From a bacterium (GTDB lineage: Bacteria > SM23-81 > DAOVCL01), in assembly GCA_029932675.1 (NCBI GenBank), contig JAOZPP010000072.1:1-18485 (forward strand): DNA of 18,485 nt, given 5' to 3'. The notes beneath the pieces were generated by a model. That model searched no databases and was not told where the DNA came from. It saw only the letters and a list, made by a program, of their open reading frames with translations. Every line of letters begins with the position of its first letter. Position 1 is the stretch's first letter. The position numbers and the translations under genes are program-made. Positions 2,319-18,412 of the stretch are shown here, one piece after another.

Positions 2319-4838
2319 ATGCTGAACGAATCAGACACCCGGGCAAAGCTCATCGATCCCAAACTTCATCGAGCGGGTTGGAAGGAAGAGAGGATTCTGC
2401 GGGAGATAGATATCACTCAGGGCCAAATCTATCTCGTTGGCGAAGAGCCAAAGAGGAGAGAGAAGAGGAGGCCGGATTATATCCTCCTCTATAAACCATC
2501 TTTCCCCATTGCCGTGGTTGAGGCCAAGGACGAATCCCACTCCCCACTGGCCGGGCTTCAACGGGCCAAGGAATATGCTAAGATATTGGATGTGCAGTTT
2601 GCCTATTCGACCAATGGGCACGAAATCGAGGAGTTCGATTTTACTACCAACAAGCAGACAGCGCTCTCACAATTCCCCTCCCCTAATGAGCTCTGGGAGA
2701 GATACTGGGTTTCCAAATCACCTTTGGGTTTAAAAAAGGCAGCAGAAACCAAGGATCTTTTTGGGAATCCTTTGCTTTACCCTTACTACCTGGAACCTGG
2801 CGGTAAGATCCCCCGGTATTATCAGGATGTGGCGATCAGGAGGGTGATAGAGGCCATCCTTAATCACAAAAAACGAGTCCTTTTGACGATGGCCACTGGC
2901 ACGGGGAAGACCTATGTCGCCTTCCAAGTGGTATGGAAGCTGGTAAAATCAAAATATCGGCATCGAGTTCTCTATATTGCTGACAGGAATTTCCTAAAGG
3001 AGCAGGCCCATAATGACGAGTTCTATCCTTTCGGCGATGCGCGGGTCTATATTGAAGAGGGAAAGGCACCCAAGAACAGGAATATCTACTTCAGCATCTA
3101 TCAGGCCCTTTATAGCGAGCGGAACGGCAAACGGCTTTACCGGGAATATCCTCCCGATTTTTTCGATCTGGTAATTATCGATGAATGCCACCGCTCTGGG
3201 TTTGGCACTTGGCATGAGATCTTGAAGCACTTCCAAAATGCTATTCATCTTGGTATGACCGCGACTCCAAAGCGGACGGACAATATTGACACCTACGCCT
3301 ACTTTGGAGAGCCAGTCTACTCCTACAGCTTTGCTCAGGGTGTCTCCGATGGATTTCTCGCCCCCTTTCAACTTTTCCGCACCTTTACTAACATTGACAA
3401 AGACGGCCTTCATCTCCAGGAGGCAATCTATCAGGGTGCACAAATCTATATTCCCGAAGAGGCCGAGCCAAGGGAAATTTACACCATGCAAGATTTCGAG
3501 CGGGAGATCATCGTGCCAGATCGGACAAGAATCCTCTGTGAGCATTTGGCCCACCAACTCCAAACCTTTGGTCCCACCCAGAGAAGCATCATCTATTGTG
3601 CGACGATAGACCACGCAGCGGAGGTGGCCAAGGAGCTGCAGAATCATTTCTCCTATTTGGGCTATTCAGATTATGCGGTTAGAATAGTCGCTGAGGAGCC
3701 GGATGTGGATAAAATCTACGAGCGATTCAAGGATTCGGAGAAACCTACCCCTGTGGTGGCTACCACGGTGGACCTTTTGACCACTGGCGTGGATATACCC
3801 TCTGTGCATAACATCGTTTTGCTTAAGCCTACAGCCTCAAAAGTCGTCTTCAAGCAGATCATCGGCCGGGGAAGTAGGATTGATCCTTCATCTGGTAAGT
3901 ATTTCTTTCGCATTATTGACTATGTGAACGCAACCAGGTTGCTCGATGGATGGGAAGTGCCGCTGGAAGGTAAACCAAAGAAAACCCTGGAGGGACCTTT
4001 TAACCTATCCCTGAAAGGGATGGTTGTAGAATACGAAGCAATGATCCCTATATCAAATGCTAAAGTTATCGCTGAGATCGGACCAAATGTGCAGCGGAGG
4101 GCTCGCACAAACAAAGGGGGAGAGTTTACCCTTACCGAGCTTCCTCACTCCCCACTTACCCTTTTTTTCTCAGCAAAAGGCTTTCGCAGTCGTAAGTTGA
4201 CCATCATCCCGGAAGCTGACAATCCACCCTTGATCATTGAACTCAGGCCAGAGGTTCCAAAGGCGAAGAAGATCGTTATCCATAACCTGGAAGTACACAT
4301 CGAAGAGGAAACCCGTTTGGTTTACACCTCTGATGGTAGATCGCTAACTGAGGCTGAGTATATTGAATATTCAAAGGAAGGGGTTATCCAACGGGCTACC
4401 TCCTTGGAAGATCTGAAAGCGATTTGGTTGGATAAGGAGGCCCGCCACTCCTTCCTGCAAGAGCTAAGAGAGGAGACTATCTATCCTGAACTCATTGCTC
4501 TATTCCTGAAAATGCCCAATGTGGATACTTTTGATTTATTCGCCCATATAGCTTTCGATGCCCCGATTCTGAGCCGCGACCAACGGGCTCAAAGGGTAAT
4601 CAACCTCCATCAATCTTTTCTCAACAGCTTCGGTTCGGAGGCAAGGGAAGTCCTCTTGGCCCTCTTGGAGAAGTATCGCATCGGAGGGATTGAGGAGCTG
4701 CGGGCAGAGGCATTTCGCATCCCTCCTTTTGACCGAATGGGCTATGGGCCAGGAGTAATCAGACGCTTTGGTGGCCCCACCCAACTCTCTCTGGCTTTGG
4801 GTGGGCTTCAGGAAAGGATTTATGAGGTTAGCAAATGA
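2319..4838 (+). CDS. hsdR: Type I restriction enzyme, R (endonuclease/translocase) subunit
   Basis: An 839-residue HsdR of the EcoEI-like group. The N-terminal PD-(D/E)xK nuclease site is visible as RRPDY (Asp53) and VVEAK (Glu68, Lys70). The SF2 translocase follows: Walker A MATGTGKT (191-198), DECH box (288-291), motif III-like GMTATPKR (312-319), and motif VI QIIGRGSR (513-520). The C-terminal part (about 645-839) resembles the EcoEI R C-terminal domain, ending in a helical region that probably docks on the methylase. Residues about 566-644 look like an extra beta-sandwich domain, described separately. With HsdM and HsdS it would translocate DNA and cut it at a distance from unmodified sites. 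The start follows GGGGAAGG and lies one base after the radC stop; the stop overlaps hsdM as ATGA. No frame damage is seen. Confidence 0.95.
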   Translation: MLNESDTRAKLIDPKLHRAGWKEERILREIDITQGQIYLVGEEPKRREKRRPDYILLYKPSFPIAVVEAKDESHSPLAGLQRAKEYAKILDVQFAYSTNGHEIEEFDFTTNKQTALSQFPSPNELWERYWVSKSPLGLKKAAETKDLFGNPLLYPYYLEPGGKIPRYYQDVAIRRVIEAILNHKKRVLLTMATGTGKTYVAFQVVWKLVKSKYRHRVLYIADRNFLKEQAHNDEFYPFGDARVYIEEGKAPKNRNIYFSIYQALYSERNGKRLYREYPPDFFDLVIIDECHRSGFGTWHEILKHFQNAIHLGMTATPKRTDNIDTYAYFGEPVYSYSFAQGVSDGFLAPFQLFRTFTNIDKDGLHLQEAIYQGAQIYIPEEAEPREIYTMQDFEREIIVPDRTRILCEHLAHQLQTFGPTQRSIIYCATIDHAAEVAKELQNHFSYLGYSDYAVRIVAEEPDVDKIYERFKDSEKPTPVVATTVDLLTTGVDIPSVHNIVLLKPTASKVVFKQIIGRGSRIDPSSGKYFFRIIDYVNATRLLDGWEVPLEGKPKKTLEGPFNLSLKGMVVEYEAMIPISNAKVIAEIGPNVQRRARTNKGGEFTLTELPHSPLTLFFSAKGFRSRKLTIIPEADNPPLIIELRPEVPKAKKIVIHNLEVHIEEETRLVYTSDGRSLTEAEYIEYSKEGVIQRATSLEDLKAIWLDKEARHSFLQELREETIYPELIALFLKMPNVDTFDLFAHIAFDAPILSRDQRAQRVINLHQSFLNSFGSEAREVLLALLEKYRIGGIEELRAEAFRIPPFDRMGYGPGVIRRFGGPTQLSLALGGLQERIYEVSK
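4014..4250 (+). other. Carboxypeptidase-regulatory-like beta-sandwich domain inside HsdR
   Basis: This encodes HsdR residues about 566-644. The pattern is LKGMVVEYEAMIPISNAKVI, then RRARTNKGGEFTLTELP, then FFSAKGFRSRKLTI. It follows the CarboxypepD_reg / Pfam PF13620-like signature: 'G.V.D....PI.GA.V', 'T...G.F.l..LP', 'a.GF....'. Such Ig-like domains are mostly found in extracellular or cell-surface proteins. Here the segment lies between helicase motif VI and the C-terminal docking region of a cytoplasmic enzyme. This call is pattern recognition by eye; a profile search would decide it. Confidence 0.6.
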
Positions 4839-6319
4839 ATAGGCAATCGGAACTCTCTAAGCACCAAACCCGTAAGGACCTGGCTAACGAAATCTGGCGG
4901 GCCTGTGACATTATGAGGCGAGACGATGGGACCACTGGGGTTCTGGAGTATATGGAGCAACTCTCTTGGATGCTTTTCCTTAAGGCCTTTGAGGCTATTG
5001 ACGAACGGTATGAAGCGGAAGCTCTGGTTGAAGGGAAACGATACGAACGGATCATTGAAGATGGATATCGTTGGTCTGTTTGGACAAGGAAGGATTGGCA
5101 GGGCGAAGAACTTATCGATTTTGTTAACACCCAACTTTTCCCTTATCTGCGGAGGCTTCACGGAACCCCGGAGAAGGAAATAATTGCCACCATCTTCAGT
5201 GAGATCCGTTATAATCGGATGAAGTCTCCGTATAATCTTAAGGATGTTATTGATATTATAGATCGGGTTGATTTTCAACGAGTGGAGGATACCCACATAA
5301 TATCTCAGGTCTATGAAGATCTTCTCCTCAGGATGGGTAGGGAAGGTGGTGTTGCCGGGGAGTTTTACACCCCAAGGCCCATCATACGCTTTATGGTGAA
5401 AGTGGTCAATCCTCAGATTGGTGAGACTGTTTTTGATCCTTTCTGCGGTTCAGGGGGATTTCTGGTGGAGGCATACCAGCGAATGAGCAAATCTCGGGAG
5501 TTGACCTTGGAGGATTTCGAGTCCCTCCAACGGAATACCTTCTATGGTCAGGAGAAGAAACCCCTTCCCTATTTGCTGGGGATGATGAATATGATCCTTC
5601 ACGAACTCTTCACTCCAAATATCGTCCGCCGAAATACCCTTGAGGAGAATATCCGCAATATTCCGGAATCCCAGAGATTTCAGGTCATTCTCACCAACCC
5701 CCCCTTTGGAGGAAAGGAAGGGAAACACATCCAAAGGAACTTTCCCATCCCATCCCGTGCCACCGAACTTCTCGCCCTCCAATATGTGATGAAAAAACTG
5801 AGGCTCAATGGACGGTGCGGCATTGTCGTCCCAGAAGGGGTTTTGTTCAGAGGGGATAGCTTTGCGGCAGTGAAGAGGGAACTGCTGGAGAGCTATAACC
5901 TCCATACCATCGTCAGTCTCCCCTCTGGTGTATTCGCTAATGTTACCTCCTCAGGTCAGGGCCCCAAAACCAATCTCCTCTTCTTCGAGCGTCCTGGCCC
6001 CACCAAAGAGATATGGTTCTATGAACTTAATCCACCACCAGGGGTGAAATATACCAAGGCCCATCCCATTGAAGATGAACACCTGGTGGATGCTTACGAG
6101 AAGTGGAAAGATCGTGCAGTCTCCGATAACTCCTGGATAGTCCTCGCGGAAGAGGTTGTCAAAGGTGGCTACGATCTGACAGCTAAGAATCCCCACCGTA
6201 AGGATGAACAAAAACACCCCCCTCCTGAGGAGCTGGTGGCTGATGTGTTACAGAAGGAGAAGGCCATTACCAAGATATTGGAGGAACTCCAGGGTTTGCT
6301 GGGAGGACAAGATGGATGA
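4835..6319 (+). CDS. hsdM: Type I restriction-modification system, M (N6-adenine methyltransferase) subunit
   Basis: The 494-residue HsdM has an N-terminal helical HsdM_N domain (about 14-150) and an N6-adenine methyltransferase domain. Seen: GEFYTPRPI (175-183), the SAM-binding motif I FDPFCGSGGF (200-209), and the catalytic motif IV TNPPFGG (287-293), the NPPF form typical of adenine-N6 methylases. It should use S-adenosylmethionine to methylate adenine in the sequence chosen by HsdS, protecting host DNA. The ATG overlaps the hsdR stop (ATGA) and is preceded by GAGG at suitable spacing. Its stop lies inside the start of the next, broken gene. The length and motifs look complete. Confidence 0.95.
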   Translation: MNRQSELSKHQTRKDLANEIWRACDIMRRDDGTTGVLEYMEQLSWMLFLKAFEAIDERYEAEALVEGKRYERIIEDGYRWSVWTRKDWQGEELIDFVNTQLFPYLRRLHGTPEKEIIATIFSEIRYNRMKSPYNLKDVIDIIDRVDFQRVEDTHIISQVYEDLLLRMGREGGVAGEFYTPRPIIRFMVKVVNPQIGETVFDPFCGSGGFLVEAYQRMSKSRELTLEDFESLQRNTFYGQEKKPLPYLLGMMNMILHELFTPNIVRRNTLEENIRNIPESQRFQVILTNPPFGGKEGKHIQRNFPIPSRATELLALQYVMKKLRLNGRCGIVVPEGVLFRGDSFAAVKRELLESYNLHTIVSLPSGVFANVTSSGQGPKTNLLFFERPGPTKEIWFYELNPPPGVKYTKAHPIEDEHLVDAYEKWKDRAVSDNSWIVLAEEVVKGGYDLTAKNPHRKDEQKHPPPEELVADVLQKEKAITKILEELQGLLGGQDG

Positions 6320-7744
6320 GAAGAGAGTGTTAGAAATCTTGGCGAAAGGGAAATCAGAAACCGTTGAATTTAAGAGGTCATTCGATAAGGAAACGCTGGA
6401 GACAGTCTCTGCTTTTGCCAATACCAAAAGGGGGGTTAATTGTTATCGGAGTTAGCCGTCAGGGGAGGATTCAGGGTGTTGTCGTCGGCAGGGAAACTCT
6501 CCGGGACTGGGCGAATCAGGTTGTTCAAGGCACAGGGGTCCAGCTCTCCCTTAAATCCACCAAGTGTGAAAGTAAAACCCTGGTCGTTATCTCTGTGGCA
6601 GAAAGCCATATCAAACCGGTTCTTTATCGTGGAAGACCTTATAAACGTGTAGGAAGCACAATTCGGGAGATGAGTGTTGAAGAGATTACTCGTTTGGTTT
6701 TAGAAGGCAGAGGTGTCACTTGGGATGAGCTTCCTGAAATCCGAGCGAGCATTGATGATCTTGCTCTCGAAAAGGTTAAAAGATTTACTGAACTTGCCAA
6801 TCGTATTGGGCGAAGACCTATTCCGGAAGAAGGGGAACCGTTAAAGGTTTTGGTGAAACTTGGGCTGATCCAGGAGGGGAAACCGACAAGGGCAGCGATT
6901 CTCCTTTTCGGTGACCGTCCACAGAGGTTTTATCCGCAGGCCATTCTCAAGATGGGAAGATTCAAATCTGAAACTCTAATTATTGATGATAAGGAGATTG
7001 AAGGGACTCTTTTTGAGCAGGTGGAAGGGGCAATGCTATACTTTCGGGATAGGCTTCAGACAAGGTTTGAGTTCACCGGCGAGCCGCAACGGAAGGTCAT
7101 CTGGGAGTACCCTCTGGATGCCTTAAGGGAAGCAGTGATAAATGCTGTTTGTCACAGAGATTACCTCAGTAATGCCCTCAGCCAGATTAGGATTTACGAC
7201 GATAGAGGGGTGGTATGGAACTCAGGCAAACTTCCAGAGCCTCTCGATCCTGAAAAGCTGAAGGGCGAACACGAGTCCATTCCCCGCAATCGCAGAATCG
7301 CAGAGATGTTCTTCTATGCTTGCTGGTTATATAGAGCGCTGGGGTGGGGGAACCTTGAAGATCTTGGAAGAGTGTGGTAAATCTAAATTACCTGAACCTG
7401 ATTTCATAGATGATGGATATAGTTTCCGCATAATCTTCAGGAAGGACATTTTAACTGAGGAGTATCTAAGGAAACTTGGCCTGAACGAGCGGCAAATTAA
7501 GGCAGTGGTGTATGTAAAAGAGAAAGGGGGAATTACAAACAAGGAGTATCAGGAGCTGTGTAAAGTAAAGAAGAGGACCGCTTCTGATGATTTAAAGGGA
7601 CTTCAAGAGCAAAACATCTTTGAGCGAGTTGGTACCACTGGGAAAGGGACTTTCTATGTGCTGAAGGGGCAGCAAACGGGCAAAAGGGGCAAGAAAGGGG
7701 CACCAAAGGGGCGAAAAGGTAATGAAAAAGTAACAAAGAGGTAG
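6312..7744 (+). pseudogene. AlbA_2 / HATPase_c_4 ATP-binding protein (Schlafen-like, RecG C-term-related), frameshifted twice
   Basis: Three consecutive frames together spell one protein of about 475 residues. The first part (6312-6428) encodes MDEKRVLEILAKGKSETVEF...SAFANTK, the start of an AlbA_2 domain. The second (6430-7317) continues with GGLIVIGVSRQGRIQGV, YKRVGSTIREMS, and the HATPase_c_4 signature YPLDALREAVINAVCHRDY. The third (about 7321-7744) continues AGYIERWGGGTLKI, a winged-helix region and a basic KG-rich tail. The first lesion is an extra A in AAAAGGGGGG (6426-6435). The second is a 4-bp tandem duplication TGCTTGCT (7317-7324). Removing five bases restores one frame with no other stop. 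Genes of this family often sit between hsdM and hsdS; their function there is not established, but a regulatory or DNA-binding role is usually presumed. The start has GGAGG and overlaps the hsdM end by 8 bases. Confidence 0.85.
7694..7719 (+). repeat. Direct repeat copy A (AAAGGGGCA-type), end of the AlbA_2 gene
   Basis: This 26-nt purine-rich segment matches 7873-7898 at 22 of 26 positions. It encodes part of the KG-rich tail of the AlbA_2 protein and contains two AAAGGGGC units; a further one lies just upstream, ending at 7690. Confidence 0.6.
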
Positions 7745-7815
7745 TGAAAAGTAATGATTTGATAACGAGAAATAATTGGCTAATAAACGGCTAATTGGAT
7801 TAAACAAAATATGCC

Positions 7816-7844
7816 TTGGTGATTATTTGGCGAAATTATATAAA
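7816..7844 (+). promoter_or_regulatory. Possible secondary promoter upstream of hsdS
   Basis: TTGGTG (7816-7821) and TATAAA (7839-7844) are 17 bp apart, in an AT-rich 156-bp gap that separates hsdS from the rest of the operon. The -35 is weak. If active, it would keep hsdS expressed independently of read-through across the broken gene. Confidence 0.35.
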
Positions 7845-7872
7845 ATAAGAGACATAAACGATTTAAAGAGAT

Positions 7873-7898
7873 AAAGGGGCATCAAAGGAGCAAAAAGC
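7873..7898 (+). repeat. Direct repeat copy B (AAAGGGGCA-type), in front of hsdS
   Basis: This is the second copy of the 26-nt repeat at 7694-7719 (4 mismatches). It contains the AAAGGAG that probably serves as the hsdS ribosome binding site. The pair encloses about 150 bp of AT-rich sequence with no gene. Confidence 0.6.
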
Positions 7899-7900
7899 CG

Positions 7901-9127
7901 ATGGAACGGTATGAACTTCCCAAAGGCTGGCGATGGGTGAAGCTGGGGGAGGTGGCTGAAGTTTTTAGTGGATCTTCTGCACCTCAAGGGCAATTTTTTT
8001 TCGAGAAAGGCTTATACCCTTTTGTTCGAGTCCAAGATTTAGGTCGGTATGGGAGGACGAAGAATCTGTCAGATACGATAGACAAAATCAACGAGTTTGC
8101 TGTCAAGAACTATAGATTAAAAAGAGCCTCCAAAGGAACTATATTATTCCCTAAAAGTGGTGCGGCGATATTGACTAATAACCGAGCTATGTTGGGGATT
8201 GATGCCTATATAGTCTCACATTTAGCGGCTGTTAAAGCAATTGAATCTGTTGCTTTAGCAGATTTCCTATACTACTGGCTCTGTTACTTCGACCTCAGGA
8301 GATTCATTGAAAACGAAGCTTATCCATCGCTGAAGTTATCCAAAATCAAGTCACTTCAAGTCCCCCTCCCACCCCTTCCTGAGCAGCGGCGTATTGTGGC
8401 AAGGATCGAAGAGTTGATAAGCCGCATTGAGGAGGCTAAAAGACTCCGCCGTGCCGCCCGTGAGGAAGCCGAGGCCATCATGCCCGCCACACTATCCCAA
8501 ATCTATGCACGGATGAAAGAGAGGGGCGTAGTTCTCAAGCCACTTGGCGAAGTATGTGAAGTAAATCCTTCACGCAAGGGTGAAACGAATTACCCGGACG
8601 ATATGATGGTAACCTTTGTCCCAATGTCTGCTGTTGATGGGGAATTAGGTGCTATAGGCGCCCCAGAAGAGCGTCCTTTTGCGAAAGTCAAGAAGGGTTA
8701 TACCTGGTTCGTTGAGAACGACGTTCTGTTTGCAAAGATAACGCCTTGTATGCAAAACGGAAAGGCAGCAATTGCTAAAGACCTCTTGAACGGTGTTGGC
8801 TTCGGGTCTACAGAGTTTCATGTACTGCGTCCGCGCGTAGGGGTACTGCCAGAATGGATCTATTTCTTTGTAAGGCAACCGTCCTTCCGCAGACTTGCAG
8901 AGGCCAATTTTACTGGCTCTGTTGGGCAGCAAAGAGTGCCAGAAAGCTTCATGAAGTCACAAGAAATTCCATTGCCATCTTTGGATGAACAACGCCGCAT
9001 TGTTACCCACCTTGACCACCTGCAAGCCAAGGTGAGGGAGCTCCGTCGCCTGGAGGAAGAGACAGAAAGGGAAATTGAGGCGATGACCTCCGCCATATTG
9101 GATAAGGCATTTCAAGGAGAGCTATGA
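7901..9127 (+). CDS. hsdS: Type I restriction-modification system, S (specificity) subunit
   Basis: The 408-residue HsdS has the canonical two-repeat plan. Target recognition domain 1 spans about 1-153, beginning LPKGWRWVKLGEVAEV. Central conserved helix region 1 spans about 154-205 (PLPPLPEQRRIVARIEEL). TRD2 spans about 206-354, beginning VLKPLGEVCEVN, and conserved region 2 about 355-408 (IPLPSLDEQRRIVTHL, ending SAILDKAFQGEL). Each TRD reads one half of a bipartite DNA target; the helices set the spacing and bind HsdM. The two TRDs differ, so an asymmetric target is expected. The ATG follows AAAGGAG (7885-7891). The 3' end is partly duplicated at 11228-11307, which shows that a second hsdS end once existed nearby. 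Confidence 0.95.
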   Translation: MERYELPKGWRWVKLGEVAEVFSGSSAPQGQFFFEKGLYPFVRVQDLGRYGRTKNLSDTIDKINEFAVKNYRLKRASKGTILFPKSGAAILTNNRAMLGIDAYIVSHLAAVKAIESVALADFLYYWLCYFDLRRFIENEAYPSLKLSKIKSLQVPLPPLPEQRRIVARIEELISRIEEAKRLRRAAREEAEAIMPATLSQIYARMKERGVVLKPLGEVCEVNPSRKGETNYPDDMMVTFVPMSAVDGELGAIGAPEERPFAKVKKGYTWFVENDVLFAKITPCMQNGKAAIAKDLLNGVGFGSTEFHVLRPRVGVLPEWIYFFVRQPSFRRLAEANFTGSVGQQRVPESFMKSQEIPLPSLDEQRRIVTHLDHLQAKVRELRRLEEETEREIEAMTSAILDKAFQGEL

Positions 9128-9283: not shown

Positions 9284-10336
9284 ATGAAAGAATCAGATGT
9301 TGGAAACAAAATCCGTGATAGCTTTGAGAATCTTTTAAGGGGTATCCCATTTCTCCAACTGAGAAGGACACTTATAGAAGAACCTCTGGGCAACATCCGC
9401 ATCGATTTGGTGTTTGAGGTTATAGTCAGAAATCGTCCACTAAAGGTTATTGTAGAGGTTAAATCCATAGGTGAACCCCGATATGTGCGGTATGCTATAG
9501 AGCAGTTGCAGCGATATTCAGCCCAACTTGATGATGCTTATGGAGTGGTGGCAGCACCATACATCGGCAATGATGCAGCTAATATTTGTAAGGAAAGCGG
9601 GATCGGATACATAGACTTAGCCGGTAATTGCTTTCTCAGTTTCGATCAAGTATATATTGAGCGTAAGAATTATCCCAATCCAAATGTAGAACGCCGTGCT
9701 CTTCGGTCCCTTTTTACCCCCAAATCGAGTCGGGTTCTCAGGGTAATGCTCTCTGACCCAAAGAGATCCTGGCAGGTGCAGGAATTAGCGAATGAAGCAA
9801 AAGTAAGCCTGGGTTTGGTGGCCAAAGTCAAGCAACGTCTTTTGGATATGGAATACGCTCTGGAAGAAGGGAGAAAACTTTTCCTAAGTCGCCCTGAGGC
9901 CCTTTTGAGCAAGTGGGCAGAAAGTTATTCATTCCGAGAAAATAAGATGTATGACTTCTTCGGCTTAGAAGAGCCTAAGGAACTGGAGCGAAAGATTGCC
10001 AAATATTGCGCGATGAGGGAAATCCCCTATGCTTTGAGCCTCTTCTCTGGTGCCGCCCTGGTAACCCCTTTTGCCCGTTACACAAGAGGATTTGTCTATG
10101 TCGGAGAAGATATTCAAGAGGTGGCAGGATTAGCAGGGTTGAAGAGGGTTTCTTCTGGGCCCAACTTAACCATCTTAGAGCCCTACGATGAGGGAGTTTT
10201 TTATGGGGTTAGGGAAATTAGGGGACTAATGGTAGCCTGCGATATCCAACTCTATCTTGACCTGATTGGATATAGGGGGCGTGGTGAGGAATCGGCCAAG
10301 TTTCTTTTGGAACAAAGGATCAAACCTCAATGGTAA
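9284..10336 (+). CDS. AbiEi-like antitoxin / transcriptional regulator (PD-(D/E)xK-like + winged helix)
   Basis: A 350-residue protein resembling the large AbiEi-family antitoxins of type IV toxin-antitoxin systems. The N-terminal domain (about 1-130) has a PD-(D/E)xK-like pattern: IRID (Asp41) and VIVEVKS (Glu58, Lys60), then GIGYIDLAGNC (106-116), a motif common in this group. A winged helix follows (about 137-200; SSRVLRVMLSD, SWQVQELANEAKVSLGLV). The C-terminal domain (about 205-350) contains SLFSGAALVTPFARY and LEPYDEGVFYG. Whether the nuclease-like site is active is unknown. Downstream, with a 7-bp overlap, is an AbiEii-like nucleotidyltransferase gene. The upstream palindromes suggest autorepression through the winged helix. 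The start is preceded by GGTGAAAG, which is also an operator half-site. The frame is intact, unlike its partner. Confidence 0.75.
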   Translation: MKESDVGNKIRDSFENLLRGIPFLQLRRTLIEEPLGNIRIDLVFEVIVRNRPLKVIVEVKSIGEPRYVRYAIEQLQRYSAQLDDAYGVVAAPYIGNDAANICKESGIGYIDLAGNCFLSFDQVYIERKNYPNPNVERRALRSLFTPKSSRVLRVMLSDPKRSWQVQELANEAKVSLGLVAKVKQRLLDMEYALEEGRKLFLSRPEALLSKWAESYSFRENKMYDFFGLEEPKELERKIAKYCAMREIPYALSLFSGAALVTPFARYTRGFVYVGEDIQEVAGLAGLKRVSSGPNLTILEPYDEGVFYGVREIRGLMVACDIQLYLDLIGYRGRGEESAKFLLEQRIKPQW

Positions 10337-11175
10337 CAAGAAGCAGCTATCCACAATCAGAGGTTGAAGCTTGTCATTCGGTATTATTAGAGATAATGAC
10401 CATATTGGGTGAGTTCAGGGAGAATATTGTCATAGTAGGGGGAAATGTTCCTCCACTCTTGGTTCCATCTGCTAAAGAGAAACATCCCGGAACCTTAGAC
10501 ATCGATTTTGCTTTAGATTTTCAGCATATTAGGGATGATACTTACAAAACTATTGTCCGGGCCTTGATGGATAAGGGCTACTATCAGAAGAAAGGGGATC
10601 AGCCGTTCAGATTTTATAGGGATATTGAGGATGCATCAGGACAAGGGATAACAGTGGAGGTTAACCTGTTGGCGGGGGAATACGGTGGCACAGGCAAAGG
10701 ATGACGCCATCAAATGGTGCAAGATGCTCAGGCTAGGAAAACGAGGGGATGTGATCTTGTCTTCAATAATACGGTAAAAATTGATCTTGAAGGACGACTG
10801 CCAAACGGGGGTAAGAATAGGGTAACTGTTAAAGTCGCTGCCATCGGACCGTTCTTAGTAATGAAGGGTATGGCACTCTGGGAAAGGATGAAGGAAAAAG
10901 ACGCCTATGATATCTATTACTGTTGCAAAAATTACCCAGGTGGTATTCCCTCGTTGGTCGAGGCAATAAAACCCATTATGAAAAATAGATTGGCGAAGGA
11001 AGGTCTGGGTAAAATTAAGTCAAAATTTGCTACAGTGGATGGAGTGGGGCCAACTTGGGTGGCAGATTTCCTTGAGCTTACCGATCTGGAGGAGAGAGCA
11101 AGGGTTCAGAGGGAGGCCTTTGAATTTGTAGATTTTTTAATGAAAGAGTTGAAGGTCAAGCCGTTTCGAGAATGA
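10330..11175 (+). pseudogene. AbiEii/AbiGii-type nucleotidyltransferase toxin, interrupted by an in-frame TGA
   Basis: Two stretches in the same frame (10330-10701 and 10705-11175) form one 281-codon gene with a single TGA at 10702-10704. The first half has the nucleotidyltransferase signature IVIVGGNVPPLL (residues 33-44) and GTLDIDFALDF (54-64; Asp57 and Asp59 are the likely metal ligands). The second half has the AbiEii-like KGMALWERMKEKDAYDI block and a Gly-Pro motif near the C-terminus. The intact family reads continuously across the stop (..GGTGKG-x-RHQ..), so the TGA is a nonsense change, easily reached from CGA. The codon for a third expected carboxylate may also be changed: VEVN at 109-112, where relatives have VxVD as I recall them. 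The start overlaps the antitoxin stop by 7 bp. AbiEii toxins are GTP-binding nucleotidyltransferases that stop growth. A full-length toxin is not expected here unless UGA is read through. Confidence 0.8.
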
Positions 11176-11364: not shown

Positions 11365-12267
11365 GTGGAGCAACTAACCTTGAGAGGGGTAAGTAAGTCC
11401 TTCGGCAGTCTCCAGGCGGTGAATGAGCTCGACCTAAGCGTAGGTGAAGGATGTATCTATGGCCTTCTTGGACCCAATGGGGCAGGGAAAACTACTACCA
11501 TCAGGATGATAATGGACATTTTGGCCCCAGATCAGGGGGAGATCAGGATCCTTGGCCAACCCAACTCCTCCAGAGTGCGGGACAGGGTAGGTTACCTCCC
11601 CGAGGAAAGGGGGCTCTATCGGAAGATGAAGGTGGGACATCTCCTCCTTTTTCTGGCCGAGCTCAAAGGGGTCAAAAAAACGACAGCTAAGGAGAGGATC
11701 GATTATTGGCTGGAGAGGTTCGACCTACTCGGTTGGAGCCAGAAGAAGATAGAAGAGCTCTCTCGAGGAATGCAGCAGAAGCTTCAATTTATTGTTAGCT
11801 TCCTTCATTCCCCTAAGCTGGTTATCTTGGATGAGCCTTTTACCGGCCTGGATCCGGTGAACATCAATCTGGTCAAAGAAGTGATGTTGGAGGAGAAGAG
11901 GAAAGGGACATCCATCATCCTCTCCACCCACCTCATGGAACAAGCCGAGAAACTATGCGATCAGATCTGTTTGATAAACGAAGGGGAGAAGGTCTTGGAT
12001 GGGGGCCTAAACGAGATAAAGGCCAACTATGGGAAGAACACTGTTGTCCTGGAATATGAAGGGCAAGCCGATTTCCTCACCGATAAGGAGGTTGTGGAAA
12101 GCTATGATGATTATGGGAAGTGGGTGGAGATCCATCCATCCCCCGGGATCAACCCGCAAGCCATCCTCAAGAGGGCTAGCCAGGAGGTAACCATCTTTAA
12201 ATTTGAGTTGGTTGAACCATCCTTGAATGAAATATTCATCCAAACTGTGCAGAAGGGGAAAGAATGA
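11365..12267 (+). CDS. ABC-2 type exporter ATP-binding protein (NatA-like)
   Basis: A 300-residue ABC ATPase. Seen: Walker A GPNGAGKTT (36-44), a YLPEERGLY segment at the Q-loop position (78-86; Glu in place of Gln, as is common in NatA-like proteins), signature LSRGM (132-136), Walker B LVILDEP (152-158), and the switch His in STHLMEQAE (189). The last 80 or so residues resemble the DUF4162 extension of ABC-2 exporter ATPases. It should power the permease encoded next, with which it overlaps by 4 bases. The GTG start follows GGGGG; an ATG at 11361 is in another frame. The substrate cannot be told from sequence: NatAB exports sodium, but relatives export drugs, lipids or peptides. Confidence 0.93.
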   Translation: MEQLTLRGVSKSFGSLQAVNELDLSVGEGCIYGLLGPNGAGKTTTIRMIMDILAPDQGEIRILGQPNSSRVRDRVGYLPEERGLYRKMKVGHLLLFLAELKGVKKTTAKERIDYWLERFDLLGWSQKKIEELSRGMQQKLQFIVSFLHSPKLVILDEPFTGLDPVNINLVKEVMLEEKRKGTSIILSTHLMEQAEKLCDQICLINEGEKVLDGGLNEIKANYGKNTVVLEYEGQADFLTDKEVVESYDDYGKWVEIHPSPGINPQAILKRASQEVTIFKFELVEPSLNEIFIQTVQKGKE

Positions 12268-13544
12268 GCAAGATAGGGACTATAATGAAAAGGGAGTTTC
12301 TGACCAGGGTACGAACAAAGGGTTTTATCATCGGGACATTGGCTATGCCCTTAGTCATTGTGATCCTTACCGGTGCCCCAGCCCTCTTGATGAGCCTGAA
12401 AAGCGAGAAACCCAAGAAGATATCGGTGGTTGATGAAACAGGGAGACTTTTTTCCAGCTTGAGAGCAGCCTTAAACGATACTGCAAAGGGGGGAATCAGG
12501 ATCTATAGGCTGGCTCAGGTAGAGGTTCCCCCTGGAGAGCTATCCCAAGTGCGGAGGGAGCTGACCAAAGGAGTTCAGAAGGGTAGGATCGATGGTTATC
12601 TAATCATCCCCGCCGATGTCTTTGAGGAAAATCAGGCGCAGTTCTATGCCCGGAATGTAAGCAACTTTCAGGTGAATGAGGATCTGCAGGGGGCTGTTTC
12701 TAAGGTGGTTTCCCATTTCCGGTTGAGCAGAAGCGGCCTTGATCCTGAGAAGGTGAAGAAACTGGTCAAGGGGGTCAACCTTAGGACTTTCAAGGTGACC
12801 GGAAAAGGGAGGGAAGAGGAGGATGTGGGGGGTACCTTTATGATTACCTACATTCTGGTCTTCTTTCTTTATATATCCTTGATGATCTATGGGGTGCAAG
12901 TTATGCGCGGGGTGATAGAGGAGAAGAGATCGCGGGTGGTGGAGATGATAGTCTCGGCTGCCAAGCCCTTTCACCTAATGGCCGGAAAGGTCTTAGGGGT
13001 AGGGGGAGTTGGACTTGCCCAGTTCCTCATCTGGGCCTTGTTAGTGGGGGGATTATCATTCTATGGAAAAAACTTGATAAGCTCTTTGGCTGGGCAGTTG
13101 GGCCCCTTTCCCGTTCCCCACATCCCGGTTTCCCTTCTTCTCTTCTTCGTTCTCTTCTTCCTCCTGGGTTACTTCCTCTATGCCACCCTCTATGCCGGAG
13201 TAGGGGCGATGGTCAATTCTGATGAGGATGCACAACATCTCCAGATGCCCTTGGTGGGCCTATTGGTTATCCCCTTTATGCTCATGTTTTACATCATTGG
13301 AAACCCAAACTCAGGGATTGCTACCCTTCTCTCCTTTTTCCCCTTCTTTACCCCCATAATTATGTTTATGCGCATAGCTGTACAGACCCCACCACTTTGG
13401 CAGGTTTTGGTCTCCATTGTGCTGCTGGGTTTCTCCATCGCCGCTATGATCTGGGTGGTGAGCAGGATCTATCGGGTGGGCATCCTGATGTATGGTAAGA
13501 GGCCCAGCCTGCCAGAGCTAGTGAAGTGGTTTAGGTATGGATAA
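12264..13544 (+). CDS. ABC-2 type exporter permease (NatB-like)
   Basis: The 426-residue membrane partner of the preceding ATPase. The layout is that of ABC-2 permeases with a large external loop: a short basic N-terminus (MKREFLTRVRTKGF), transmembrane helix 1 (about 22-44), a soluble extracytoplasmic domain (about 50-185), then about five or six hydrophobic helices between 190 and 405. RGVIEEKRSRVVEMIVSAAKP (219-239, between the second and third helices) is the conserved cytoplasmic coupling segment of this family. The ATG overlaps the ATPase stop and has GGGG five bases upstream. The gene ends in a convergent intergenic region. What it transports is unknown. Confidence 0.92.
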   Translation: MSKIGTIMKREFLTRVRTKGFIIGTLAMPLVIVILTGAPALLMSLKSEKPKKISVVDETGRLFSSLRAALNDTAKGGIRIYRLAQVEVPPGELSQVRRELTKGVQKGRIDGYLIIPADVFEENQAQFYARNVSNFQVNEDLQGAVSKVVSHFRLSRSGLDPEKVKKLVKGVNLRTFKVTGKGREEEDVGGTFMITYILVFFLYISLMIYGVQVMRGVIEEKRSRVVEMIVSAAKPFHLMAGKVLGVGGVGLAQFLIWALLVGGLSFYGKNLISSLAGQLGPFPVPHIPVSLLLFFVLFFLLGYFLYATLYAGVGAMVNSDEDAQHLQMPLVGLLVIPFMLMFYIIGNPNSGIATLLSFFPFFTPIIMFMRIAVQTPPLWQVLVSIVLLGFSIAAMIWVVSRIYRVGILMYGKRPSLPELVKWFRYG

Positions 13545-13680: not shown

Positions 13681-16035
13681 CTAACTTCCTTGATAATCGA
13701 CGGGGATTGTTCCCTTCCCCCCTCTGAGCTCAGACTGCTGGAGTTCCTCCTCTAAGAGATCAGCCTCCTGAGCCACCAGATGCATTCGATGGAGGGCGAG
13801 CAACCAGGATATAGTTGACTCACCACCCTGGTTTTGATTGACCCCTCCTGGTTGAAGACCATCATAACAGCCTCCAGTGGAAAAATCGTAGAGCATCTGG
13901 TGGAGGTCATTCCTACCTAAAAACCAGCTAAAGGCCAGTTCCCTTATTTCCTGCCAATGATCATCCCGCGTAGCCATTTCCGCCTGCCAGCAGGCATCTA
14001 CCAATGCTGCTGCATTCACCGGCTGTTGGTCAAAACGGGCTCTCTCCTTACCCCGCTCAAACCATCCTTGGTTGCCGATCAAGGAGAGATGTCCCTCCTC
14101 CGTATCGCTTTGGAGTTCAATTAGCCATCTCAGGGATCGTAACCCCTGATTAAACATCTCCTCATCGGCCAGATGGCTTCCTGCAGCGATGAGGGCTTGG
14201 GTGAGGCGGGCGTTTTCATAGGAGAGGATGTCCTCGGCCCAGGGCCAGTCTGGACTGGAGTTTACCTCAAAGAGGGCATAGAGTCGGCGAGCGAGCTGGA
14301 TCATAATGTTCTTTACCTCGGTGTCGCCTGGAAAGCGTTGGAGGTAGTGGAGCGCCCCTAAGATGGAGAAGGCCCAAGGGCGTGGAAAGGAGAGGGAGAG
14401 GCAGGAGCGGATGGTTTGCTGAAAGAGGCGGACGGACAACCCCAAAATAGGAGGGGGAAGCGAACAGGAGGTAGCATAGCCCAAGGCCCAAACGGCCCGG
14501 CCATGGCTGTCCTCAGAGCCAACCTCTTCCAACCACTTTCTCTCATAGCTCATAAAGTTCCGCATCCTCCCGCTCTCCGGATCCAGAGCATAGTTAAGAA
14601 AGGCCAGGTAAGTGTGTAGAAGGGGGAATATCCCCTTGTCTTGAAAGAGTTCCCAGTTCATCAGGGTGATGATCAGGGCCCGGGCATTATCATCTGTGCA
14701 ATAGCCATGAAACCAATCCGGGGTGGTGAAGGTGGCATGCTGCACAAGGCCTGTGGTGTCAGTGAGCCTTTCGAGGTGGGCGAGGTCGATATCCGGGAGC
14801 GCCGGTGATTTAATGGTCTTTCGCCAAAGGCGTCCAGCCTTGGCCTGCTGGCCATATTCTGAGAGGGCTCTCTCAAAGGCCTCCGCGTATCTCCCCGAGG
14901 TTTCCCGCCAGGTCATCTGCCTACCAAACTGGTAGGCCAGTTTACGCATCCTATTTCGCTTGGTCTCATCGCTGAGAAGGTCGATGAGGCTCTCGGCGAT
15001 GGCCTGGCTATCCCGGAAGGGGACTAAGCTCCCTCGTCCCTCAGCTAAGAGTTCCTTCGCATACCAGGAAGGGGTAGCAACGATGGGTTTTCCACAGGCA
15101 GCAGCATAGGCAAGTGTGCCGGAGACGATCTGTTCTTCGGCGAGATAAGGGGCCAGATAGATGTCTGCCGCTACCAAGAGCTGCACCAACCTCTCCTGGG
15201 TAACGAACCGGTCATGGAAGCTGACCCACTCCTCCAACCTGTTTTCCTTCACCCTTCGTTCCAAGAGGAGGCGGTACTGCTCTCCAAAGTGTCGTTTAAC
15301 CTCAGGGTGGGTAGTGCCAACCACTAAATAGAGGACCTTGGGGAATTTTTTTGCCACTGTGGAAATAGCATCGATGGCAAACTCGATGCCCTTGCTTGGA
15401 TTGAGGAGTCCAAAGGTGAGGATAAGCCAACGCCCCTCGGCCTGAAATTGGTCCTTGTAGTAGGCCGGGTCGATAAAGGGTACATCTGGGGTCCCGTGGT
15501 GGATCATCACTATCTTCTTCGCTGGTATCCTATAGGCCTCGGTGAGTATATCGACAGCGGTCTTCGACTGAACGACCACAAGGGTGGAAAGGGAACTCAC
15601 CCTACGGAGGACATCCTTCTGGATTGGAGAAGGGGTTTTGAGCAGGGTGTGAAGGGTGGTTACTACAGGTTTCTTTAAATGCTCAAGGAGATAAAGGATA
15701 TGACTCCCCTCCTCTCCTCCAAAGATACCGAATTCGTGTTGGAGTGAGACGACATCGACGGGGGAAAGGTTTAGAAAATCTGCGGCATCTCGGTAATCGT
15801 CCTTATAGTGATCTCGGATTTCAAACTTCACCTCTGATGGATAGGGAGTAATAGGAGCAACCTTGTTTAAGGCCACCACTTGAAGGTTTTCATTTGTCTT
15901 TTCCGATAGGGTAGCCCCATACAGCCCGCTGAGGCCGTGGAGCAGATCTTGGGTGAAGGTTCCAATACCACACCGCCGGGGCGGATAAGTGCTGATAAAA
16001 GCTACCTTAAGAGGTTTAAACAATCCTGTGCCCAT
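13681..16035 (-). CDS. GT4-like glycosyltransferase fused to a glycosidase-like (probable alpha/alpha-barrel) domain
   Basis: A 784-residue two-part protein. Residues about 8-395 form a GT-B glycosyltransferase: VAFISTYPPRRCGIGTFTQD (11-30), SLQHEFGIFGG (97-107), TFGLLNPSKGIE (207-218), and SGTLAYAAACGKPIVATPSW (305-324). The usual GT4 E-x7-E is replaced by Gln302 and Tyr310 in this alignment. Residues about 410-784 are mostly helical with repeated acidic/aromatic motifs: FHGYCTDDNARALI (442-455), EDSHGRAVWALGYA (508-521), WPWAEDILSYENARL (597-611), FDQQPVNAAALVDA (678-691) and YDGLQPGGVNQNQGGES (724-740). This resembles (alpha/alpha)6 sugar-cleaving enzymes, but I cannot name the family. The start follows GGGGG at 7 bases and lies 4 bases after the upstream GT4 stop. 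It probably acts with that GT4 and the GH130 protein on one glycan. No signal peptide is seen, so it should be cytoplasmic. Confidence 0.85.
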   Translation of the reverse strand: MGTGLFKPLKVAFISTYPPRRCGIGTFTQDLLHGLSGLYGATLSEKTNENLQVVALNKVAPITPYPSEVKFEIRDHYKDDYRDAADFLNLSPVDVVSLQHEFGIFGGEEGSHILYLLEHLKKPVVTTLHTLLKTPSPIQKDVLRRVSSLSTLVVVQSKTAVDILTEAYRIPAKKIVMIHHGTPDVPFIDPAYYKDQFQAEGRWLILTFGLLNPSKGIEFAIDAISTVAKKFPKVLYLVVGTTHPEVKRHFGEQYRLLLERRVKENRLEEWVSFHDRFVTQERLVQLLVAADIYLAPYLAEEQIVSGTLAYAAACGKPIVATPSWYAKELLAEGRGSLVPFRDSQAIAESLIDLLSDETKRNRMRKLAYQFGRQMTWRETSGRYAEAFERALSEYGQQAKAGRLWRKTIKSPALPDIDLAHLERLTDTTGLVQHATFTTPDWFHGYCTDDNARALIITLMNWELFQDKGIFPLLHTYLAFLNYALDPESGRMRNFMSYERKWLEEVGSEDSHGRAVWALGYATSCSLPPPILGLSVRLFQQTIRSCLSLSFPRPWAFSILGALHYLQRFPGDTEVKNIMIQLARRLYALFEVNSSPDWPWAEDILSYENARLTQALIAAGSHLADEEMFNQGLRSLRWLIELQSDTEEGHLSLIGNQGWFERGKERARFDQQPVNAAALVDACWQAEMATRDDHWQEIRELAFSWFLGRNDLHQMLYDFSTGGCYDGLQPGGVNQNQGGESTISWLLALHRMHLVAQEADLLEEELQQSELRGGKGTIPVDYQGS

Positions 16036-16039
16036 TGCT

Positions 16040-17071
16040 TCACCCCCTTTCTTGTAAAATGCGTTCGTATACCTCTATATATTGATTTACCATCCTTTCG
16101 ACGGTAAAGCGGGCTTCAACCCATGATCGACACCGCTGGCGGTCCAACTGATGGATCTGAGGAATTACCTTGACGGCCTCTTCAGGAGAATGGACTAAAA
16201 ATCCGTTTTCCCCATCCTGAATGATCTCCGGGATAGAACCCCGGGGGATGCCGATCACCGGAGTACCACAGGCCATAGCCTCCACTAGGCTGAGCCCAAA
16301 GGGCTCATCAAAGTTGATTAAGTGGAGGAGAGCCTTGGCCTTCCCTAAAATTTCTCCCTTTCCCTCTGGTCCCACCGGCCCGATGTAACGGATGGAATCA
16401 TTGTCTAGCCAAGGGGCAACCTTTTCCTTATAGTAAACTCCGTCCTGAATGATCCCGGCAATCACCAGCGGAAGACCTGCTTCTCTGGCCACCTGAATGG
16501 CTTCATAGACCCCTTTGTCTTCATGGATGCGTCCGAAGACGAGCAGATAGTCGCCTTGATCCTCGTAAAAAGGATACTCCTCTACGGGAATGCCATGGTG
16601 GATAGTGGCCATATATTCCAGATCTGATTGCCGGTCAGCCTCGCTAATGGCGACATAATAGACCTTGCGGTTATATTTGCGATAGACCGGAAGGATCTTC
16701 GGGGAGGAGAAACCATGGATTGTGGTAAGCACAGGAGTAGCTACTAACCCAGAATAGGTGAGCGGCAAGAAGTCAAAGTGGTTGTGAATTAGATCGAACT
16801 CGCTGGCATGTTCAAAGACCTCTGATATGTGTAAGCATTCCCATACCTTAGGGCTAAGCTGAGGATCTTCTTCATAGGGATGTGGACAAATCCAATGGAG
16901 ACGAGCCTTGGTGTGCGAATCCCCAGTGGCGAAAAGGGTGACATCAATGCCCTCACGGACCAATCCCTCCGTTAAGAGGCTTACCACCCACTCCCAGGGG
17001 CCGTAGTGGCGGGGTGGGGTCCTCCAGGCGATGGGGCTGAGCATGGCAATATGGATATCCCTCAAGTCCAT
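16040..17071 (-). CDS. GT4 family glycosyltransferase
   Basis: A 343-residue GT-B fold glycosyltransferase. Seen: an N-terminal IAMLSPIAWRTPPRHYGPWE loop (acceptor side), FDLIHNHFDFLPL (92-104), YLLVFGRIHEDKGVYEAI (175-192) at the start of the nucleotide-sugar domain, and a canonical E-x7-E in DEPFGLSLVEAMACGTPVIG (Glu256, Glu264). Retaining transfer from an NDP-sugar is expected; with GH130 next to it, GDP-mannose or a similar donor is plausible but unproven. The ATG at 17071 has only AAGG right before it; a second ATG nine codons in is possible but would remove the first beta strand. It is the middle gene of a three-gene minus-strand operon, 15 bases after GH130. Confidence 0.92.
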   Translation of the reverse strand: MDLRDIHIAMLSPIAWRTPPRHYGPWEWVVSLLTEGLVREGIDVTLFATGDSHTKARLHWICPHPYEEDPQLSPKVWECLHISEVFEHASEFDLIHNHFDFLPLTYSGLVATPVLTTIHGFSSPKILPVYRKYNRKVYYVAISEADRQSDLEYMATIHHGIPVEEYPFYEDQGDYLLVFGRIHEDKGVYEAIQVAREAGLPLVIAGIIQDGVYYKEKVAPWLDNDSIRYIGPVGPEGKGEILGKAKALLHLINFDEPFGLSLVEAMACGTPVIGIPRGSIPEIIQDGENGFLVHSPEEAVKVIPQIHQLDRQRCRSWVEARFTVERMVNQYIEVYERILQERG

Positions 17072-17086
17072 CCTTATGGTAAAAGG

Positions 17087-18067
17087 TTATAGGGGGGGGC
17101 GCGATCTCCTCAGACACAGGTCGATCAGGTCTTCTATCTTGGCTGTGCCCACACAGAGGACCTGGTCTGCCCCTCCCCAGTAGATCTTCACCGTCCCATC
17201 CTCTTCCGGAACAGCACCGCAGCAGAAAACGACATTAGGTACATAGCCGGTTAGCTCCCAAGGATCTTCAGGCTGGAGTATCCATTCATCCGCTACTCCT
17301 CTAATTCGGGATGGCTCCTCCAAGTCATGGAGAACAACCCCCAGTCGGTAGATTGCCCCCCTCATTGTCTGAAAACATCCGTGATAGATGTGCAGCCAAC
17401 CCTGGCTTGTGGCGAATGGGGTAGCCCCTGGACCTATCTTCAGCTCATCCCAATGGTATTTCAACGGTTTCATTAAGATTTGAGAGTTCCCCCAATGGAT
17501 GAGGTCAGGCGAATAGGAGAGCCAGATGGACCAGGGGGATATCCCCGAATGGGGACGATCAAGCCTAAGATAATAACCATTAAATCTTTTGGGGAAGATG
17601 ACCACATTTCGGTAATCAACCTGGGTGATCAAAGCAACCCTCTCCACTTTCTTGAAGTCCTCGGTGCGCGCCAAACCCACCCTCACCCCATATCTAGAAT
17701 AGGCGCTGTAGGTTATCAGATACTCCCCTTCCACTTCGCAGATGCGTGGATCCTCAACCCCATACTCCTCGTAGGCAGAGAAGACCCCCTCCTTCGATGG
17801 CGTCATAAATGGTTGGGGATTAACCTGAAAATGGAAGCCATCTGAGCTTTCTGCGAGGCCGATGATCGAGCGTCCATTGCGCCGGTGAGCCCTGAAGAGC
17901 ATCAGGTACCTCTCTCCGATTTTGACGACACCGGCATTATGGACTGTTTCCACCGGATAGGGCACATCCTTCCTGGTGAGGATGGGATTTCCTTCGTATC
18001 GTTTGATGATGTTAGTATTCACAGGGGTATTCATCATAGATTTTGGGAAGCGGATGCTACCGATCAC
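17087..18067 (-). CDS. Glycoside hydrolase family 130 (mannoside phosphorylase-type)
   Basis: A five-bladed beta-propeller enzyme of GH130, up to 326 residues long. Seen: RYEGNPILTR at the N-terminus, the catalytic-acid motif GVEDPRI (Asp106), a K-I-G-P-G-A-T-P-F segment followed by GWLHIYHG (223-230), and a C-terminal GGADQVLCVGTA segment. GH130 members phosphorolyse or hydrolyse beta-1,4- or beta-1,2-linked mannosides and release mannose 1-phosphate when phosphate is used. The subfamily cannot be fixed by eye. No signal peptide is present, so it should be intracellular. The start is uncertain: the GTG at 18067 and the ATGs at 18037 and 18034 all lack a clear ribosome binding site, and family homology begins after them. 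It is the first gene of the operon. Confidence 0.9.
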   Translation of the reverse strand: MIGSIRFPKSMMNTPVNTNIIKRYEGNPILTRKDVPYPVETVHNAGVVKIGERYLMLFRAHRRNGRSIIGLAESSDGFHFQVNPQPFMTPSKEGVFSAYEEYGVEDPRICEVEGEYLITYSAYSRYGVRVGLARTEDFKKVERVALITQVDYRNVVIFPKRFNGYYLRLDRPHSGISPWSIWLSYSPDLIHWGNSQILMKPLKYHWDELKIGPGATPFATSQGWLHIYHGCFQTMRGAIYRLGVVLHDLEEPSRIRGVADEWILQPEDPWELTGYVPNVVFCCGAVPEEDGTVKIYWGGADQVLCVGTAKIEDLIDLCLRRSRPPL

Positions 18068-18378
18068 AAGAAGGTAAAATCAGGCTACACTCCCTCTGCT
18101 ATAAGGGGGTATCTAACCAATTACCAATTGGAACTTAACCCCATTGATTCCCAAATCCCCATGGGGGCTTTCCCCTCTGGCTTAGTGGTTTTGTGCTTAC
18201 CAGGATTGGCCACTCTCCTAATTGAGCCCTGTCCCTCGGAATTTGTTTAAACTATGGAATGCGCAGCTAAGGGATGAGAATCAGGAAAAAGGAAAAGAAG
18301 GCCTTACAGACCATATGGGGCGGTTTGATCTTGGCCTTAAATTAAATGCCTCTTTTGCTATGAGACTGAAGAGGGACT
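18068..18378 (-). other. Long untranslated leader of the GH130-GT operon, possibly regulatory
   Basis: About 310 nt separate the predicted transcript start from the GH130 start, with no convincing gene. Reading the minus strand, two nested short stems occur: GGCU/AGCC (18228-18225 with 18182-18179) and AGUGG/CCACU (18214-18210 with 18188-18184). A perfect CCCCATGGGG palindrome lies at 18157-18166. A 13-codon mini-ORF (18162-18121, MGIWESMGLSSNW) follows a GAGGGG at good spacing. I match none of this to a known riboswitch class. Confidence 0.3.
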
Positions 18379-18384
18379 CCTTAT

Positions 18385-18412
18385 ATTATAAGATAAAAGA
18401 CGGGGATGTCAA
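18385..18412 (-). promoter_or_regulatory. Consensus sigma-70 promoter for the GH130-GT operon
   Basis: On the minus strand a perfect TTGACA (18412-18407) and a perfect TATAAT (18390-18385) are separated by 16 bp. This is the best-matching promoter in the window and points toward the GH130 gene. The remaining bases to the window end (18413-18485) show nothing I recognise. Confidence 0.7.

What the first reader, a model, noticed from the sequence alone, without database searches (positions are those of the whole stretch)
13681..18067. GH130 - GT4 - (GT4 + glycosidase-like fusion) operon
Seen: three tightly spaced genes on one transcript, two making and at least one breaking glycosidic bonds, none with a signal peptide. 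Known: GH130 enzymes act on beta-mannosides. Inference: an intracellular mannose-containing oligosaccharide or reserve glycan is synthesised and recovered as mannose 1-phosphate. The pathway does not match a named one that I know.
Basis: partly seen in the sequence, partly recalled or inferred. Interest (0 to 1): 0.6.

Follow-up and report, generated by a model that had tools for sequence, protein, structure and literature searches.

The report
Conserved bacterial mannose-glycan turnover operon
Three adjacent genes that recur together across many bacterial phyla, and in some relatives sit beside the mannose-activating enzymes, most likely build and recycle an unidentified mannose-containing sugar chain inside the cell; the pathway has no name and one enzyme domain in it has no described family.

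Summary
Three minus-strand genes encode a GH130 (18067-17087), a GT4 (17071-16040) and a GT4 fused to an (alpha/alpha)6, glycosidase-like domain (16035-13681), with gaps of 15 and 4 bases and no signal peptides. The set is not a local accident. Of 37 fused homologues in diverse genomes, 30 have a same-strand GH130 within 3.5 kb. A Sphingobium plasmid reads ManC - PMI - fusion - GH130 - phosphomannomutase, a complete mannose-1-phosphate loop. The window's own genome has ManC, and a phosphomannomutase directly before further GH130 genes. So an intracellular mannose glycan with recovery as mannose 1-phosphate is well supported. Two parts of the reading need changing. GT4 enzymes make alpha bonds and GH130 cleaves beta-mannosides, so they cannot make and break the same bond. 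[quoted passage not shown] The C-terminal domain has no Pfam or NCBIfam model. It keeps four invariant acids shared with exported proteins found in GH130 loci (12 of 12). I found no named pathway. Function is inferred only; glycan, linkages and physiological role are unknown.

The parts
17087..18067 (-). GH130 (type A), 326 aa; catalytic Asp106, preceded by Glu105; phosphate-site residues Arg153, Asn154, Arg171, His229 aligned with TM1225 and RaMP2
   Evidence: PF04041 E 2.5e-58; PDB match to TM1225 E 1.9e-58; motif table; residue numbers; 15-member clade, SH-aLRT 100, distinct from the beta-1,4 references
16040..17071 (-). GT4 (GT4b), 343 aa, glucosylsucrose-synthase-like; Tyr23, the Arg and Lys of the FGR/DKG motif and the EPFGL glutamate conserved
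   Evidence: PDB match to 7fg9/8x3q E 1e-84; function of Tll1591 from PMC9909042
14851..16035 (-). N-terminal GT4 domain of the fusion (residues 1-~395)
   Evidence: PF00534 E 2.1e-18, PF13439 E 1.2e-8; nearest solved relative PimA, a GDP-mannose alpha-mannosyltransferase, weak at E 1e-8
13681..14850 (-). C-terminal (alpha/alpha)6-like domain of the fusion; acids Asp448, Asp449, Asp725, Glu739 invariant across fused, split and exported homologues
   Evidence: Profile match to 7tem E 1.7e-22; conservation; low-confidence all-helical model, top fold match 7tem
18385..18412 (-). promoter-like site TTGACA-16-TATAAT upstream of the operon, about 310 nt before the GH130 start
   Evidence: 12 of 12 consensus match; consensus match only

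Best explanation
The operon encodes the synthesis and turnover of a soluble, cytoplasmic, mannose-containing oligosaccharide. Inferred steps: sugar nucleotides (GDP-mannose, and UDP-glucose for GT4b) feed two retaining GT4 enzymes that build alpha-linked units. GH130 adds or removes beta-linked mannose reversibly, using alpha-mannose 1-phosphate and phosphate. The (alpha/alpha)6 domain fused to the second GT4 trims or releases the chain, so one polypeptide both extends and cuts. Mannose 1-phosphate returns to GDP-mannose through ManC or to glycolysis through phosphomannomutase and PMI. Shown here: gene order, domain make-up, retained GH130 phosphate-site residues, invariant acids, cross-phylum linkage, and mannose-pathway neighbours. 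Not shown: any activity, donor, linkage or the glycan itself.
For: Linkage: 30 of 37 fused homologues have a same-strand GH130 within 3.5 kb against 2 of 22 split ones (Fisher p 6e-8, not corrected for kinship). Genome level: 53 of 59 genomes with the C-terminal domain have GH130 against 55 of 327 without it. Mannose loop: ManC-PMI-fusion-GH130-PMM in Sphingobium amiense; PMI-fusion-GH130 in Devosia and Sinorhizobium, ManC-fusion-GH130 in Sphingobium cloacae; ManC beside split homologues in four loci; own-genome ManC and PMM directly upstream of tandem GH130. The same three-gene set (fusion, GT4b, GH130) in Deinococcus sp. KNUC1210, and with a second GH130 in Ilyobacter polytropus. GH130 keeps the phosphorylase residues. 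Exported relatives of the C-terminal domain sit near GH130 in 12 of 12 loci, most with ABC sugar-importer genes. Precedent for GH130 + ManC + GT4 in one cluster: Thermoanaerobacter, PMC4264767.
Against: No activity is known for the C-terminal domain or for this GH130 clade. GT4b resembles a glucosyltransferase, so a purely mannose product is unlikely. Seven fused homologues lack a nearby GH130 (one at a contig end), and two of their genomes (G015, G302) have no GH130 match at all. No mannose-activating gene lies in the window itself. Conserved acids do not prove catalysis. Survey genomes within one family are not independent.
Confidence: 0.5

Rival explanations
1. The product is a stress-protective compatible solute (a small mannosyl/glucosyl oligosaccharide), not a reserve. 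The same enzymes make it under stress and clear it afterwards.
For: Neighbours in some records are stress genes: DnaK, GrpE, universal stress protein and Dps in Sphingobium cloacae; GroES/GroEL in S. amiense; CsbD in Devosia. The nearest characterised GT4b relative makes glucosylsucrose, which accumulates under salt stress (PMC9909042).
Against: Stress neighbours are anecdotal, confined to alphaproteobacterial plasmids, and not tested against background; the window has none beside it.
Confidence: 0.25
2. The genes salvage imported or recycled beta-mannosides, and the GT4s rebuild an envelope or exported glycan from the recovered mannose, as proposed for Thermoanaerobacter GDP-mannose salvage.
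For: Exported relatives of the C-terminal domain lie with ABC importers and GH130; the Thermoanaerobacter cluster combines GH130, ManC and GT4 with an importer.
Against: None of the three window proteins looks exported; the adjacent ABC genes are a convergent exporter of DrrA/ABC-2 type; no importer lies in the operon. Neighbours of the other fused loci were clustered but mostly not annotated, so flippases or polymerases there are not excluded.
Confidence: 0.15
3. The C-terminal domain is not a catalyst but a glycan-binding or regulatory module (as non-catalytic alpha-toroids can be) that positions the GT4 on its acceptor.
For: In the cytoplasmic forms it is nearly always adjacent to or fused with a GT4, and it has no Pfam model.
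Against: Asp448, Asp449, Asp725 and Glu739 are invariant in cytoplasmic and in exported stand-alone homologues, which is expected of an active site.
Confidence: 0.15

Closest known systems
Thermoanaerobacter sp. X-514 GH130 cluster (Teth514_1785-1796; PMC4264767)
   Same: Intracellular GH130 phosphorylases clustered with ManC and a GT4
   Different: That cluster has an ABC importer and a GH5 and is read as salvage of outside oligomannan; the window has neither, but has the GT4-(alpha/alpha)6 fusion
Leishmania mannogen turnover (GT108 dual glycosyltransferase-phosphorylases; described in PMC8950772)
   Same: Cytosolic beta-mannose glycan recycled by enzymes with the GH130-like fold; works alike if the best explanation is right
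   Different: The window has GH130, not shown GT108, plus two GT4s; polymer and linkage unknown
Glucosylsucrose synthase Tll1591 (TeGSS; PMC9909042)
   Same: GT4b aligns end to end with E about 1e-84; catalytic Tyr18, Arg179, Lys184 and Glu256 conserved
   Different: Trp10, which stacks on the fructose of sucrose, is not conserved at the aligned position; the window partner is GH130, not sucrose-phosphate synthase
GH130 (TM1225, RaMP2; GH130_NC including beta-1,2 enzymes, PMC4599007)
   Same: Fold family, catalytic Asp, phosphate-site residues
   Different: Own well-supported clade; Glu rather than Tyr before the catalytic Asp (GH130_NC-like) but Arg-Asn rather than Lys at the motif that types B and C carry; specificity not assignable
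YPO2471 of Yersinia pestis (PDB 7tem, function unknown) and exported homologues
   Same: Homologous (alpha/alpha)6-type domain with the same conserved acids
   Different: Exported, stand-alone, homologues linked to uptake operons; the window's domain is cytoplasmic and fused to GT4

Membership tests
GH130 | Match to the GH130 family model above its cut-off | tested here: met
   PF04041 198 bits against 26
GH130 phosphorylase (not hydrolase) | Basic phosphate-binding residues kept rather than replaced by Glu as in BT3780 | tested here: met
   Arg153, Arg171 and His229 align with phosphorylases TM1225 and RaMP2; the rule is from PMC4599007; which residues they are in BfMGP is from memory
GH130 beta-1,2-specific | Lys equivalent to BT3780 Lys199 | tested here: inconclusive
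   Type B and C relatives have Lys where the window has Arg153, but BT3780 itself was not in the alignment
GH130_1/GH130_2 (beta-1,4) | Tyr before the catalytic Asp | tested here: not met
   Window has Glu105-Asp106; rule from PMC4599007
Glucosylsucrose synthase (TeGSS) | Catalytic Tyr18/Arg179 and UDP-phosphate contacts Lys184/Glu256 | tested here: met
   Aligned identical residues in P0002; Arg, Lys and Glu are common in GT4, so only Tyr is telling
Glucosylsucrose synthase (TeGSS) | Trp10 stacking on fructose of sucrose | tested here: not met
   Ala15 at the aligned position, with a Trp one residue on
Glucosylsucrose synthase (TeGSS) | Uses UDP-glucose and sucrose | not testable with these tools
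   Needs an assay
Thermoanaerobacter-type GDP-mannose salvage cluster | ABC sugar importer in the cluster | tested here: not met
   Adjacent ABC genes are DrrA-like plus ABC-2 exporter, convergent
Mannogen (GT108) system | Cytosolic beta-1,2-mannan and GT108 enzymes | not testable with these tools
   No GT108 model was searched and the glycan is unknown
Any Pfam or NCBIfam family for the C-terminal domain | Match above a curated cut-off | tested here: not met
   None for the window's domain; best among 20 relatives are C5-epim_C 1e-7 and GH127 2.5e-4

The most novel reading that the evidence does not exclude
A widespread bacterial counterpart of mannogen: a cytoplasmic glucose/mannose hetero-oligosaccharide made and recycled by a bifunctional GT4-glycosidase polypeptide (a new GH family in its C-terminal half) together with GH130, closing a mannose-1-phosphate cycle.
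Probability: 0.3. Interest if true: 0.8.

Novelty: new variant of a known kind. Interest (0 to 1): 0.57.

Why it matters
If right, bacteria of many phyla hold an overlooked intracellular mannose glycan with its own build-and-recycle machinery, comparable in role to glycogen, trehalose or Leishmania mannogen. It would give a function to a conserved GH130 clade and to an (alpha/alpha)6 family without a Pfam model that includes a solved but unexplained structure (7tem), and it offers a rare natural fusion of a glycosyltransferase with a glycosidase-like enzyme.

Tried and rejected
Riboswitch or structured leader in the ~310-nt 5' region: no Rfam match, even at E 5, and folding no better than shuffles (z 0.64). 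Viral origin: no relative in viral contigs or phages. Simple AGE-type epimerase for the C-terminal domain: weak similarity only, and no invariant catalytic His pair. First adjacency count used non-overlapping ORFs and missed GH130 genes hidden by longer false ORFs; redone in six frames. Tree-based test of fused form against GH130 linkage: too few independent pairs. Literature: no paper found on this gene set. The genome-contig scan with the single protein gave only one named relative, a KSB1 bacterium.

Full report
Observation. A perfect sigma-70-like promoter match lies at 18412-18385, and the gene after the fusion is convergent, so the unit appears to be exactly three genes. The window is a whole 18,485-base contig of a 3.03-Mb genome, 97% complete.

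GH130. PF04041 matches at 2.5e-58; the best solved relative is TM1225. The catalytic Asp106 and the phosphate-site residues Arg153, Asn154, Arg171 and His229 align with the beta-1,4 phosphorylases TM1225 and RaMP2, so a phosphorylase is likelier than a hydrolase by the rule of PMC4599007. Glu precedes the catalytic Asp, as in GH130_NC, not Tyr as in GH130_1/2. The window protein belongs to a 15-member clade ('type A', SH-aLRT 100) separate from types B and C. Linkage specificity cannot be assigned.

Stand-alone GT4 (GT4b). It aligns over its whole length with Tll1591 (7fg9/8x3q, E about 1e-84), a UDP-glucose:sucrose alpha-1,2-glucosyltransferase (PMC9909042). The catalytic Tyr18 is kept; Trp10, which contacts the fructose of sucrose, is not. 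In a Sphingomonas parapaucimobilis plasmid a 58% identical GT4b sits with a GH130 and a GH13 most like alpha-glucosidases. A glucosyl donor is therefore a serious possibility.

Fusion. Residues 1-395 are GT4, with PimA (GDP-mannose) as a weak nearest solved relative. Residues ~406-765 have no Pfam or NCBIfam model. A 20-sequence profile matches 7tem (YPO2471, function unknown) at 1.7e-22 and cellobiose 2-epimerases at 4e-5, which points to an (alpha/alpha)6 fold; a low-confidence model agrees. Asp448, Asp449, Asp725 and Glu739 are invariant in over 60 cytoplasmic and 12 exported homologues.

Comparative evidence. In 386 genomes, strong matches to the C-terminal domain occur in 59, of which 53 also have GH130; of the other 327, 55 do. 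Fused forms have a same-strand GH130 within 3.5 kb in 30 of 37 loci; split forms (separate GT4 and C-terminal genes) in 2 of 22. Split forms lie beside ManC in four loci and beside PMM- or nucleotidyltransferase-like genes in others (these read from sequence, not family-searched). Fused forms make up 36 of 38 rows of a clade with SH-aLRT 100 that holds the window. GT4b accompanies 10 of the 37 fused loci, all with GH130.

Mannose evidence. Sphingobium amiense has ManC - PMI - fusion - GH130 - PMM in a row; Devosia and Sinorhizobium have PMI - fusion - GH130; S. cloacae ManC - fusion - GH130; two Rhizobium plasmids fusion - GH130 - AGE epimerase. Ilyobacter has GT4b - GH130 - GH130 - fusion, and Deinococcus sp. 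KNUC1210 has fusion - GT4b - GH130, the window's set, though its GH130 is only 39% identical and of the Lys type. The window's genome has a ManC-like gene (292 bits, below the cut-off of the bifunctional GMP_PMI model) and a phosphomannomutase/phosphoglucomutase directly upstream of type B GH130 genes, plus a further GT4 - GH130 pair.

Exported relatives. Twelve distant homologues of the C-terminal domain, most with lipoprotein- or signal-like N termini, lie in loci that hold GH130, most with ABC sugar-importer genes. This ties the domain to GH130 substrates independently of the GT4.

Mechanism. By the definitions of the CAZy families (own knowledge), GT4 enzymes retain the donor's configuration and give alpha-glycosides; GH130 enzymes invert and act on beta-mannosides. 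They cannot make and break the same bond. I therefore read the system as two GT4s building alpha-linked parts, GH130 adding or removing beta-mannose through mannose 1-phosphate, and the (alpha/alpha)6 domain cutting the chain. All catalytic steps are inferred.

Known systems. The closest are the Thermoanaerobacter GH130-ManC-GT4 cluster (PMC4264767), read by its authors as salvage, and Leishmania mannogen turnover (PMC8950772). Neither is reported with the fusion. No paper on this gene set was found in the open-access library searched, which lacks most subscription journals.

Verdict. A real, conserved, unnamed operon; the mannose reading is well supported, the simple loop is not, and the role is open.

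Noticed in passing
window 2319-9127: Type I restriction-modification genes by reading (R 2319-4838, M 4835-6319, S 7901-9127), interrupted by an ATP-binding-like ORF 6364-7744 that seems split by a frameshift near 7316-7380.
   Followed up: no
window 9284-11175: Possible defence or toxin-antitoxin-like pair by reading (HTH-like protein followed by a nucleotidyltransferase-like ORF split near 10704).
   Followed up: no
window 11365-13544: ABC exporter, DrrA-like ATPase plus ABC-2 permease, convergent with the GH130 operon.
   Followed up: partly
L067 8022-10094 (own genome, contig C106): Tandem type B GH130 genes behind a phosphomannomutase; the second copy is broken, its matches lying in two separate pieces.
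   Followed up: partly
L065 7974-10335 (own genome, contig C42): A second, divergent GT4 - GH130 pair in the same genome, and a tandem GH130 pair on C104 (L066 8815-10730).
   Followed up: partly
L144-L155: Exported homologues of the C-terminal domain in GH130 loci, most with ABC sugar importers; probably an undescribed secreted glycosidase family that includes PDB 7tem.
   Followed up: partly
L056-L064, L117-L142: Split GT4 + C-terminal-domain gene pairs, mostly without GH130, several beside ManC or phosphomannomutase-like genes: possibly a related pathway.
   Followed up: partly
window 18068-18378: Long (~310 nt) leader between a consensus-perfect promoter and the GH130 start; no RNA family or unusual folding found.
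   Followed up: yes
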